Virus record (IMG/VR): IMGVR_UViG_3300036715_003906
Location: 186,001 to 250,000 of that record
DNA length: 64,000 nt
Strand: one strand, 5' to 3'
Source: a virus
The notes under the pieces are model-generated. The model searched no databases, was not told where the DNA came from, and worked only from the letters and a program-made list of their open reading frames with translations. The translations under genes and the position numbers were made by a program. Of the stretch, positions 14,257 through 24,743 are shown piece by piece (position 1 is the stretch's first letter; every line of letters starts with the position of its first letter).

Positions 14257-14304
14257 GGTCGCTGTCCTACAACCGTGGAGCTGATAGGGAGATAAGCGTG
14301 GAGG

Positions 14305-14654
14305 TGGAAGCGCAGGGGATCGAACCCTGGTCCACAATGACCTACAGCACCCTTCATTCACGTACATAGTCCCTCTAACCCTCGGGACGGGGTGCCCAGG
14401 ATTCGGCCTGGGCCCTAGCCGCTGCTTTTCTCACCCCCGGCTGCATCGGCGCCGGCCGGGGGCCATCCCTACTAAGTTCACACCCCTACCCGGCCGGGCA
14501 AGGAGGCCGGCCGGAGGGATGCTCGTCAGGCCGCGAGGGCGACGAGAGCCACGTTGTCGTTGGCGTGTGTGTTTTCCCAGCTTGGTTGAGGCGGGGCAGG
14601 GGCCGCCTGTACGCAGGATACGTTCGGTCACCGTGTCGAAGCCATTTCGCCCCC
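14305..14654 (-). ncRNA. ssrA: tmRNA (transfer-messenger RNA)
   Basis: The 3' tRNA-like domain has a T-arm CAGGG/TTCGATC/CCCTG, acceptor strand CGCTTCC and discriminator A, and contains the tmRNA-typical GTAGGTCATTGTGGACC. The 5' end GGGGGCG pairs with CGCTTCC using two G-U pairs and leads into GGCTTCGACACGG, matching the conserved 5' tmRNA block. The internal reading frame at 14564-14526 encodes ANDNVALVALAA then TGA, a normal proteolysis tag ending in LAA. The length of 350 nt is typical. It rescues stalled ribosomes with SmpB; no smpB is visible here. Confidence 0.93.
14526..14564 (-). other. ssrA: tmRNA tag-peptide reading frame
   Basis: Resume codon GCC, then codons for ANDNVALVALAA and stop TGA. 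The ANDN start and LAA end match bacterial ssrA tags recognised by ClpXP-type proteases. Confidence 0.88.
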
Positions 14655-18218: not shown

Positions 18219-18244
18219 TGGAGTCCACCTGTCATTCGCTGCGG

Positions 18245-18315
18245 AGTCGAGGGTGGGAATCGAACCCACGATGCGGCTTTTGCAGAGCCGTGCCTTACCG
18301 TTTGGCTACCTCGAC
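18245..18315 (-). tRNA. tRNA-Cys(GCA)
   Basis: Acceptor GTCGAGG/CCTCGAC, D-stem GCC/GGC, anticodon arm CGGCT/CTGCAAA/AGCCG (GCA), T-arm GTGGG/TTCGATT/CCCAC, discriminator U as expected for Cys. Confidence 0.9.
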
Positions 18316-18320
18316 ACGAG

Positions 18321-18849
18321 AGCGAGCACCGGGAGTCGAACCCCGCTATTTACGACCAAAAGTAGATGTCTGGGTATGGCAGTTGGGGCAGAGGAATCGC
18401 AGGTTTGTGGCCTCATTGTTATGCCGATCCCCGTCTCTGTGGTCCACCTGCAAAACCAAGGGCTTGCCTTGCCACTCAGGACCTTGGCTGCACTCTGCGC
18501 ACTGATGCAAAATCCCCGTTGCCAGCAAAGCCCTGCGAAGTTGATGAGGCTTGCAACGATAAGGCCCAGCGGACTCAAAAACCTGAGCGGGAGCCTTCTG
18601 CTTCCCAGAGGGCTGTCCCGCTGCCCACCCCTTCCCCTCCGGGATGTGGGACCGATCGATGCCGGCGGAGAGGATTCTAGTTTTGAGGTGCTCGTGCTGA
18701 CTCCCGGAGAACGTCGTGACTCCGAGCTTCCTCAGCACTGCGCTGATCGAGGCACTTGATTTAACAGCCTCGGCAATGGCTTCGTCGGTGTACTTGACTG
18801 GCATCGTATGGTGCCCATAGCACATGCCTTACCGTTCGGCCATGCCCGC
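18321..18849 (-). tRNA. tRNA gene split by an HNH gene
   Basis: The 5' piece (18849 down to about 18825) has acceptor GCGGGCA and a D-arm GGCCGAACGGTAAGGC. The 3' piece (18345-18321) has a T-arm CGGGG/TTCGACT/CCCGG and acceptor TGCTCGC. The two acceptor strands are fully complementary (one G-U). Between them, replacing the anticodon arm, is only the HNH gene, whose TAG stop touches the T-stem. Isotype cannot be read. Either an intron with an ORF or a disrupted tRNA. Confidence 0.6.
18346..18825 (-). CDS. HNH homing endonuclease inserted in a tRNA gene
   Basis: Up to 159 residues; the start is ATG at 18825 or 18804 (MPVKYTDEAIAEAV). The first 60 residues look like a helix-turn-helix DNA-binding module (ISAVLRKLGVTTFSGS). 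The C-terminal part has CAECSQGPEW, LQVDHRDGDRHNNEATNLRF and CPNCHTQTSTFG, a complete HNH with two zinc pairs, of the type that follows NUMOD-like modules. The gene fills the gap between two tRNA halves. The insertion is about 480 nt and almost all coding, so a group I ribozyme core would have to overlap the reading frame. Confidence 0.85.
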   Translation of the reverse strand: MCYGHHTMPVKYTDEAIAEAVKSSASISAVLRKLGVTTFSGSQHEHLKTRILSAGIDRSHIPEGKGWAAGQPSGKQKAPAQVFESAGPYRCKPHQLRRALLATGILHQCAECSQGPEWQGKPLVLQVDHRDGDRHNNEATNLRFLCPNCHTQTSTFGRK

Positions 18850-18853
18850 ACAG

Positions 18854-18929
18854 CGCGGGGGGGACGAGTTGAACGTCCGTACCCGAAGACCCGAAGGCCC
18901 GCGGTGCTCTACCCTTGAGCTACCCCCGC
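18854..18929 (-). tRNA. tRNA, anticodon unresolved
   Basis: Good acceptor (GCGGGGG/CCCCCGC), D-arm (GCTC/GAGC with GG) and T-arm (GGACG/TTCAACT/CGTCC), but the anticodon region holds CTTCGGGT twice in tandem and no clean 5-bp stem with a 7-nt loop. Candidate anticodons TCG or CGG; may be non-functional. Confidence 0.5.
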
Positions 18930-19684: not shown

Positions 19685-20653
19685 TCAGATCGGGGAGGAC
19701 TGAACGACCCAGAAGTCGCTCGCCTGCTTCGTGTCCCCAACGTAGTCGTAGGCCATCCAGAAGTAGCCCCCGAGGCCCCAGCTCGCGCCCCAGGAGTTGC
19801 GGACCAGGAAGGCGCCGGTCGAGAACGTACCGTTCGCCCGCTTGATCACCTTGGCGTCGTCGTAGCCCACCAGGCAGACCGCGTGCCCGCCCTGGAGCTG
19901 CTCACTCGGGTCGGGGTAGGGGAGGACCGCCTCCGTCGCCATGGTCTGCGACATGAAGTGGTCGTAGACCTGGAACCCGAAGCCCACGAGGAAACCCGAG
20001 GCCAGCATCGACTTCATCGTCGAGAGGTCGCCGTCCGCGATCGAGTGGTAGCTCGTCACCTTGTGCGTCGCCGCCGCCGCCCAGATGGCCGCCGGTGGGT
20101 TCACCGCGAACTTCGTGATGTCGTAGGGGTAGGCCGCCTCGGCCGCGACCCCGTACTGGGCCCCGGCCTTGATCGCGTCCCGGATGGTCGCCCCGGAGTC
20201 CTCCTGGACGGTCCCCTCGATCTTCCTCGTCGCGTAATACTCGAAGAGGCGAGAGCACAGAACCGGAACCTTGGACGGGGCCGGCGCAGGCGTGGGGGCA
20301 GGGGCCGCGGGCACCACCTTCGTGGCGAAGGAGAGGGACCCGTCGGAGGCCACCGCCACCCCCGATACCTGGACCGTGGGCACGGCCGGAGCCGCCGCCC
20401 GAAGCCCGAGGCGCTTCAGCTCGTTGAACTCGACGATGCCCGCGAACATGTTGCCCGTGCAGCTCCCGAGGTCCCCCTGGTCCACCACCGGGCTGCACCC
20501 GGGGAGGTTGCTGAACGAGGGCGGGATCGCGAGGAGGATGCCCGGCATCTTGACCCGGAACGCTTCGTCCCGGACGTCGACCGGCTGCTTGCGCCAGCCC
20601 CGCATGTGGACCCGGCGAACCGAGCCATCCTTGGCATGAACTTCCTTTAGCAT
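19685..20653 (-). CDS. Papain-like cysteine peptidase (family C1)
   Basis: About 322 residues. The active-site Cys is in DQGDLGSCTGN, the catalytic His in GGHAVCLVGYDD and the catalytic Asn in VRNSWGASWGLGGYFWMAYDY, the papain triad in order. An Ala/Pro/Thr-rich insertion (PAAPAPTPAPAPSK) lies between the Cys and the next helix. No signal peptide, so a cytosolic or virion location is likely. It sits alone within the tRNA array. A second, divergent C1 peptidase is at 53070-53867. Possible roles are host-protein degradation or virion maturation. Confidence 0.9.
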   Translation of the reverse strand: MLKEVHAKDGSVRRVHMRGWRKQPVDVRDEAFRVKMPGILLAIPPSFSNLPGCSPVVDQGDLGSCTGNMFAGIVEFNELKRLGLRAAAPAVPTVQVSGVAVASDGSLSFATKVVPAAPAPTPAPAPSKVPVLCSRLFEYYATRKIEGTVQEDSGATIRDAIKAGAQYGVAAEAAYPYDITKFAVNPPAAIWAAAATHKVTSYHSIADGDLSTMKSMLASGFLVGFGFQVYDHFMSQTMATEAVLPYPDPSEQLQGGHAVCLVGYDDAKVIKRANGTFSTGAFLVRNSWGASWGLGGYFWMAYDYVGDTKQASDFWVVQSSPI

Positions 20654-21663: not shown

Positions 21664-21767
21664 GAGCCCTTTCAGCGGAAGCAGGAGGAGTCGGACCTCT
21701 CCCCCGGAGGGGTCAATCGGGTAGCGACCGACGGGCCCGCCACCGGGCCTTCAGCTTCCAAGCGTCG

Positions 21768-21850
21768 CGGAGCGCGGAGGAGTCGAACCCCTGTCACAAG
21801 GGACCCCCGGTTTTCGAGACCGGTGTCCCGCCGCCGGGACGTCACGCTCC
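21768..21850 (-). tRNA. tRNA-Ser(CGA)
   Basis: Class II tRNA with long variable arm. Anticodon arm CCGGT/CTCGAAA/ACCGG (CGA), acceptor GGAGCGT/GCGCTCC, discriminator G as in Ser, T-loop TTCGACT. Its first 9 nt overlap the end of an HNH remnant. Confidence 0.85.
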
Positions 21851-24542: not shown

Positions 24543-24682
24543 CGCCGGAGAGGAGGAATCGAACCCCCATTTCCACATGGGCAATGGAGTCCCTGCAAGG
24601 CATTCACCGCTGGCACCCCGTGTGGGAATCGAACCCGACCCCGGATTTCAATCCAGTGCTCTACCGATTGAGCTACCCCGGC
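24543..24682 (-). tRNA. Composite or interrupted tRNA-like locus
   Basis: The 5' end GCCGGGG with a perfect D-arm (GCTC AATCGGTA GAGC) and a Phe-like arm CTGGA/TTGAAA/TCCGG is followed by one T-arm whose acceptor does not match. About 70 nt further on, a second T-arm (GGGGG/TTCGATT/CCTCC) ends in CTCCGGC, which pairs fully with the 5' GCCGGGG. Inside lies TCCAT/TGCCCAT/GTGGA, a possible CCC arm. Probably two tRNAs merged by recombination, or an insertion in one. Confidence 0.4.
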
Positions 24683-24743
24683 GTCGCCACACTGCATCGC
24701 GTTCACCCCCGCGCAGGGGAAGGGCCTGTGGCAAGCCCCTTGG

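What the first reader, a model, noticed from the sequence alone, without database searches (positions are those of the whole stretch)
18321..18849. A tRNA gene split by an HNH gene, with almost no room for a ribozyme
The 5' half (acceptor GCGGGCA and D-arm) and 3' half (T-arm and acceptor TGCTCGC) pair perfectly but are separated by about 480 nt that is nearly all HNH coding sequence, whose TAG stop touches the T-stem. Known group I introns in tRNAs need a catalytic core of some 200 nt or more. Either the ribozyme overlaps the reading frame, the two halves are joined in trans, or the enzyme gene has simply destroyed the tRNA.
Basis: partly seen in the sequence, partly recalled or inferred. Interest (0 to 1): 0.8.

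Follow-up and report, generated by a model that had tools for sequence, protein, structure and literature searches.

The report
Homing-enzyme gene breaking a phage tRNA
In a large phage, a selfish DNA-cutting-enzyme gene sits in the middle of a tRNA gene and has most likely destroyed it; related phages show that this enzyme family repeatedly lands in tRNA genes, often bringing a replacement tRNA along, which this copy lacks.

Summary
On the minus strand, a tRNA 5' part (18849-18819: acceptor, D-arm, 5' anticodon stem) and a 3' part (18345-18321: T-arm, acceptor) flank an intact 152-codon HNH gene (18804-18346) whose TAG abuts the T-stem. The acceptor halves pair 7/7 (one G-U); only 2 of 992 mismatched tRNA pairs in the window do that. 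No Rfam intron is found even at E=10. The bases that should finish the anticodon arm are missing or malformed, so neither splicing nor trans-joining gives a normal tRNA. Best reading: a free-standing HNH homing endonuclease gene (phrog_10822) inserted into the tRNA and killed it. With/without comparisons in named phages show the family's habit. EFDG1 keeps nt 1-33 of a tRNA-Leu(UAG), cut exactly before the anticodon, then the HNH gene, then a complete but different tRNA-Leu(UAG). EcSzw-2 shows the same with a 12-base stub. EPA3 has HNH in place of tRNA-Trp, with no replacement. The window resembles EPA3: insertion without rescue. The locus itself is modest. The family pattern, a tRNA-targeting endonuclease gene often travelling with a divergent same-anticodon tRNA, is the interesting part; I found no description of it in the open-access papers searched.

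The parts
18819..18849 (-). 5' part (stub) of the interrupted tRNA: acceptor 5' strand GCGGGCA, D-arm, 5' anticodon-stem strand, ending in T32/T33 of the anticodon loop
   Evidence: sequence; 7/7 pairing with the 3' part; same cut place as the EFDG1 stub, which ends exactly before the anticodon
18805..18818 (-). 14 nt ATGGGCACCATACG between stub and HNH start codon: either cassette leader or a damaged rest of the anticodon arm and variable loop (nt 34-48)
   Evidence: sequence; ambiguous. Exact removal of the CDS would leave a 5-nt anticodon loop, or a 7-nt loop on a mismatched stem
18346..18804 (-). HNH homing endonuclease gene, 152 aa plus TAG (an in-frame ATG at 18825 would give 159 aa)
   Evidence: phrog_10822 E=1.3e-39; Pfam HNH_3 and HNH below cut-off; His, Asn and zinc-ribbon Cys residues conserved in alignment
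18321..18345 (-). 3' part of the interrupted tRNA: T-arm CGGGG-TTCGACT-CCCGG, acceptor 3' strand TGCTCGC, discriminator T
   Evidence: sequence; acceptor pairing 7/7
18243..18315 (-). intact tRNA-Cys(GCA) immediately downstream; neighbour, for context
   Evidence: ARAGORN, Rfam RF00005 67.5 bits
18853..18929 (-). tRNA immediately upstream with an abnormal anticodon arm (tandem CTTCGGGT); neighbour, for context
   Evidence: ARAGORN '???(tcgg)'; RF00005 45.3 bits

Best explanation
A free-standing HNH homing endonuclease gene of a phage family (phrog_10822) has inserted into one tRNA gene of this phage's tRNA array, most probably at a break in the anticodon loop just 5' of the anticodon, and has inactivated that tRNA. 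In this family the enzyme probably cuts a tRNA gene in a competing phage at the anticodon loop, and repair copies the enzyme gene into the cut. In several relatives the incoming DNA also carries a complete, divergent tRNA with the same anticodon (or rebuilds the tRNA's 5' part), so decoding is kept and the site can no longer be cut. The window's copy has no such rescue tRNA: the enzyme gene runs straight into the old tRNA's T-arm. Shown here: the split, the intact HNH ORF, absence of a recognised intron, and the with/without structures in three named phage groups. Inferred: cutting specificity, direction of events, and loss of tRNA function.
For: Acceptor halves pair 7/7, a 0.2% event for unrelated tRNAs. 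The insert is one HNH ORF colinear with free-standing homologues in phage tRNA arrays; no Rfam intron. EFDG1: nt 1-33 of tRNA-Leu(UAG), identical to GVEsP-1 and Ben and cut exactly before TAG, then HNH, then a complete type II tRNA-Leu(UAG) that phage A2 carries without HNH. EcSzw-2: 11-12-nt stub of SUSP1's tRNA-Leu(UAG), then HNH, then a different tRNA-Leu(UAG), the type ESh19 has without HNH. EPA3: HNH in place of the tRNA-Trp(CCA) of JG004/Ab10, only GGCCCGCCA left, no replacement. Candidate stubs ending near the anticodon loop lie upstream of other family members (L028, L035, L036, L049, Val group L067/L077/L079/L080).
Against: No empty-site relative of this phage was found, so the original tRNA and its anticodon are unknown. 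The 14 nt at 18818-18805 could be tRNA rather than leader, moving the insertion to nt 48/49, away from the family's usual site. The 5' part is well preserved, which is odd for an old pseudogene and fits only a recent insertion. Cleavage and homing are untested. The tight HNH-stop/tRNA-start spacing alone is only mildly enriched over other ORFs in these arrays (36/62 vs 52/134, p=0.014), and D-arm-like motifs upstream are only modestly enriched (16/62 vs 118/1022, p=0.002). Metagenome assembly error cannot be excluded.
Confidence: 0.83

Rival explanations
1. A very small or unrecognised self-splicing intron whose ribozyme overlaps the HNH frame removes itself and leaves a working tRNA.
For: Insertion in or near the anticodon loop is where known bacterial tRNA group I introns sit (own knowledge); ARAGORN's intron mode can build a cloverleaf.
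Against: No Rfam group I or II match in the insert at E<=10. The insert is colinear with free-standing HNH proteins from end to end. The 3' anticodon-stem strand complementary to TGTGC is absent in front of the T-arm. ARAGORN's intron mode makes three other calls here that bridge separate tRNAs. Many arbitrary junctions also give nonsense tRNA calls (819 of 3300).
Confidence: 0.04
2. The two pieces are made separately and assemble or are ligated in trans into a working tRNA, as in split tRNAs of some archaea.
For: Acceptor and T-arm are well preserved; removal of exactly the CDS gives a 70-nt cloverleaf-like fold.
Against: That fold is no more stable than shuffles (z -0.41) while the neighbouring tRNA-Cys has z -3.19; its anticodon hairpin is abnormal and the T-stem has a G-G mismatch. 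No PF09414 RNA ligase in the record; the PF09511 search was uninformative because its controls did not ring.
Confidence: 0.04
3. The pieces come from two different tRNA genes that flank the HNH gene by chance.
For: In relatives the HNH gene often has a different tRNA on its 3' side from the stub on its 5' side.
Against: 7/7 acceptor pairing occurs in 2 of 992 unrelated pairs here; neither part matches any other tRNA of the window.
Confidence: 0.05
4. The cassette arrived with a rescue tRNA 5' part, as in EFDG1, and this was later deleted, so the locus is a decayed home-and-rescue element rather than a plain insertion. (A sub-case of the best explanation: the tRNA is dead either way.)
For: Relatives carry a tRNA start at -35 to +7 nt from the HNH stop; the window stop touches the T-arm instead, as if about 48 nt had been removed.
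Against: No trace of a second acceptor or D-arm before the T-arm; EPA3 shows that replacement without rescue also happens.
Confidence: 0.25

Closest known systems
T4 SegB and tRNA-array homing endonucleases (PMC13096335; Brok-Volchanskaya et al. 2008, cited in PMC2988022)
   Same: Phage homing endonuclease genes sitting in tRNA arrays; SegB is reported to cut inside tRNA genes.
   Different: SegB is GIY-YIG and lies between tRNAs. The reported motif RAWTSGAAC resembles the T-arm on the complementary strand (my reading). Here an HNH enzyme interrupts the tRNA and the cut is inferred at the anticodon loop.
Intronless homing by SegF/SegG with co-conversion of a resistant neighbouring allele (review PMC2988022)
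   Same: Enzyme gene spreads together with the donor's allele of the cut gene, replacing the recipient allele; a good mechanistic model for EFDG1 and EcSzw-2.
   Different: There the target is a neighbouring protein gene and remains whole; here a truncated stub of the target tRNA remains upstream and the co-inherited allele is a different tRNA with the same anticodon.
Aeromonas phage Aeh1 nrdA split by a mob endonuclease (PMC2988022, details from own knowledge)
   Same: A free-standing homing endonuclease gene inserted inside a phage gene, leaving two pieces.
   Different: The protein pieces are reported to reassemble into a working enzyme; here the pieces are RNA, part of the anticodon arm is missing or malformed, and function is probably lost.
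Group I introns in bacterial tRNA genes (tRNA-Leu UAA, tRNA-Arg, tRNA-fMet; own knowledge)
   Same: Insertion in the anticodon loop, sometimes with a homing endonuclease ORF.
   Different: No ribozyme detected here; the insert is all coding.

Membership tests
HNH homing endonucleases (phrog_10822) | HNH-family profile match with conserved catalytic and zinc residues | tested here: met
   phrog_10822 E=1.3e-39; invariant Cys pairs, His and Asn in a 12-sequence alignment. Pfam HNH_3 and HNH score just below their cut-offs.
Free-standing homing endonuclease gene | Present/absent polymorphism between close phages at a defined site | tested here: inconclusive
   Met for relatives EFDG1, EcSzw-2 and EPA3. 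No empty-site relative was found for the window phage itself.
Free-standing homing endonuclease gene | Site-specific DNA cleavage and super-Mendelian inheritance | not testable with these tools
   Needs protein and co-infection.
Group I or II intron in tRNA | Conserved ribozyme core | tested here: not met
   No Rfam match in the insert at E<=10.
Group I or II intron in tRNA | Both exons together contain a complete tRNA | tested here: not met
   3' anticodon-stem strand complementary to the 5' strand is missing before the T-arm; the exact CDS-excision product has an abnormal anticodon arm.
Trans-spliced or split tRNA | Two halves with a joining site that restores a full anticodon arm | tested here: not met
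   As above; no complementary leader pairing was looked for.
tRNA-replacing HNH cassette (pattern described here) | Stub of target tRNA 5' of HNH plus complete same-anticodon tRNA 3' of HNH | tested here: not met
   Stub present, replacement tRNA absent in the window; full pattern met in EFDG1 and EcSzw-2.

The most novel reading that the evidence does not exclude
A widespread HNH family in phages cuts tRNA genes at the anticodon loop and spreads as a natural home-and-rescue drive: the enzyme gene destroys the recipient's tRNA and supplies a sequence-diverged, uncuttable tRNA with the same anticodon. The window shows the rescue-less form, which removes a tRNA from a phage array.
Probability: 0.45. 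Interest if true: 0.75.

Novelty: new variant of a known kind. Interest (0 to 1): 0.5.

Why it matters
If the family pattern holds, it is a natural counterpart of engineered homing-rescue drives and a simple reason why phage tRNA arrays keep swapping tRNAs of the same anticodon and accumulate tRNA fragments. It is directly testable with sequenced, culturable phages (EFDG1 with HNH against GVEsP-1, Ben and A2 without). For annotation, tRNA halves beside HNH genes should be read as endonuclease scars, not as introns or trans-split tRNAs.

Tried and rejected
Group I/II intron: Rfam at E<=10, no match. ARAGORN intron mode: its His(atg) call is not trustworthy because three of four calls in that run bridge separate tRNAs. 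Exhaustive junction test: 819 of 3300 joinings give some tRNA call with mostly impossible anticodons, so a call is no evidence of splicing. Looking for the empty site: exact and degenerate patterns in viral contigs, blastn of the joined 70-mer in phages, and neighbours through the peptidase gene at 19685-20653 gave nothing usable. Idea that the cassette always duplicates the downstream tRNA's 5' end: not general. Idea that the HNH-stop/tRNA overlap is by itself diagnostic: weak against control ORFs (p=0.014). Typing stubs by nearest tRNA: works only for EFDG1 and EcSzw-2. nhmmer with a 27-nt tRNA profile was useless, no hits at all. tRNA identity of the split gene: T73, G1-C72 and C2-G71 would fit Gly, but the anticodon is gone; left open.

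Full report
What is there. On the minus strand of the window (a 251,474-base virus record; window = 186001-250000), a tRNA array of about 30 genes contains, between an abnormal tRNA (18929-18853) and tRNA-Cys(GCA) (18315-18243), the sequence GCGGGCATGGCCGAACGGTAAGGCATGTGCT (18849-18819), then 14 nt, then an HNH ORF from ATG 18804 to TAG 18346, then CGGGGTTCGACTCCCGGTGCTCGCT (18345-18321). The first piece is a tRNA acceptor 5' strand, D-arm and 5' anticodon-stem strand; the last is a T-arm and acceptor 3' strand. The two acceptor strands pair 7/7 with one G-U. Among 992 pairings of acceptor strands from different tRNAs of the window only two reach 7/7, against 22 of 32 for true pairs. The pieces are therefore almost certainly one gene.

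The inserted gene. The protein is a member of phrog_10822 (E=1.3e-39) with conserved HNH and zinc-ribbon residues. The viral-contig scan reports 202 relatives and keeps the best 80; 215 phage records hold a match. The ORF aligns with free-standing HNH proteins from end to end, so there is no spare sequence for a ribozyme, and Rfam finds none at E<=10. The record holds a single copy.

Can the tRNA still work? Before the T-arm there is no strand complementary to TGTGC. If only the CDS were removed, the product would have a 5-nt anticodon loop, or a 7-nt loop reading AUG on a stem with mismatches, plus a G50-G64 mismatch in the T-stem; its folding energy is like that of shuffled sequence (z -0.41) whereas the neighbouring tRNA-Cys has z -3.19. 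ARAGORN calls something tRNA-like for 819 of 3300 arbitrary joinings, so such calls mean nothing here. No RNA ligase of PF09414 was found in the record. Loss of function is the best reading, by inference.

What the family does. With/without comparisons between close, named phages give the key evidence. (1) Enterococcus phages: GVEsP-1 and Ben carry a type I tRNA-Leu(UAG). EFDG1 carries the first 33 nt of exactly that tRNA, ending at ...GGCACT immediately before the TAG anticodon, then a leader, the HNH gene, and a complete tRNA-Leu(UAG) of type II with the same acceptor and T-arm but different D, anticodon-stem and variable regions; phage A2 carries type II without the HNH gene. (2) Ounavirinae: SUSP1 has one tRNA-Leu(UAG); EcSzw-2 has its first 11-12 nt, the HNH gene, and a different tRNA-Leu(UAG), with identical sequence resuming at the CCA end; ESh19 has that second tRNA without HNH. 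(3) Pakpunavirus: JG004 and Ab10 have tRNA-Trp(CCA) (Rfam 31 bits in JG004); EPA3 has the HNH gene there and only the last bases GGCCCGCCA of the tRNA, with no replacement. In metagenomic relatives the HNH stop lies -35 to +7 nt from the start of an intact tRNA in 36 of 62 distinct loci, but this alone is only mildly above other ORFs in the same arrays (52 of 134, p=0.014). Tail-less 5' tRNA stubs that stop near the anticodon loop can be seen upstream of several (L028, L035, L036, L049, and the Val group L067, L077, L079, L080), with D-arm-like motifs in 16 of 62 upstream regions against 118 of 1022 control windows (p=0.002). In L077 the stub's acceptor pairs 7/7 with the downstream tRNA's 3' acceptor strand while that tRNA's own 5' strand pairs 6/7, which suggests that only the 5' part was replaced there.

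Interpretation. The simplest mechanism is homing by a free-standing endonuclease whose target is the anticodon-loop region of tRNA genes. Repair from a donor that carries the HNH gene next to a divergent tRNA of the same anticodon replaces the cut tRNA, leaves a stub, and makes the site uncuttable. This is intronless homing with co-conversion as described for T4 SegF and SegG (PMC2988022), applied to tRNA genes. SegB, a GIY-YIG enzyme, is already reported to cut inside tRNA genes and to co-localise with them (PMC13096335). The window copy shows the same stub position (after T32/T33) but lacks the replacement; it resembles EPA3. Whether it never had a replacement or lost it cannot be told. The alternative that the insertion lies at nt 48/49 (taking the 14 nt as a damaged anticodon arm) would still leave a defective tRNA.

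Limits. No HNH-less relative of this phage was found, so the identity of the broken tRNA is open. Cutting, homing and direction of events are inferred. The literature search covers open-access papers only; none of the ten searches turned up a description of tRNA-replacing HNH cassettes.

Noticed in passing
window 18853-18929 (-): tRNA directly upstream of the split one has a tandem CTTCGGGT-CTTCGGGT in its anticodon arm; ARAGORN cannot assign an anticodon. Possibly another damaged tRNA.
   Followed up: partly
window 24544-24684 (-): A Phe(GAA)-like tRNA 5' half with a 6-nt anticodon loop is followed by two T-arm/acceptor ends about 65 nt apart; the far one pairs 7/7 with the 5' acceptor (Rfam 28.8 bits over 138 nt). 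Looks like a scrambled or interrupted tRNA without a nuclease gene.
   Followed up: partly
window 21677-21759 (-): A second Ser/Sec-like long-arm tRNA below cut-off lies next to tRNA-Ser(CGA) at 21767-21850, which itself just reaches the Rfam tRNA-Sec threshold.
   Followed up: no
window 14303-14654 (-): The phage carries a tmRNA gene with tag ANDNVALVALAA.
   Followed up: no
L091 1427-2013 (Rhodococcus phage Francesca): The HNH CDS fills exactly the space between tRNA-Glu and tRNA-Gly, starting on the base after one tRNA and stopping on the base before the next.
   Followed up: no
L028, L067 and other relatives, HNH 3' ends: HNH stop codons often lie inside the first bases of the downstream tRNA, so tRNA 5' processing would remove the stop codon from the mRNA; a possible link between tRNA maturation and nuclease expression.
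   Followed up: no
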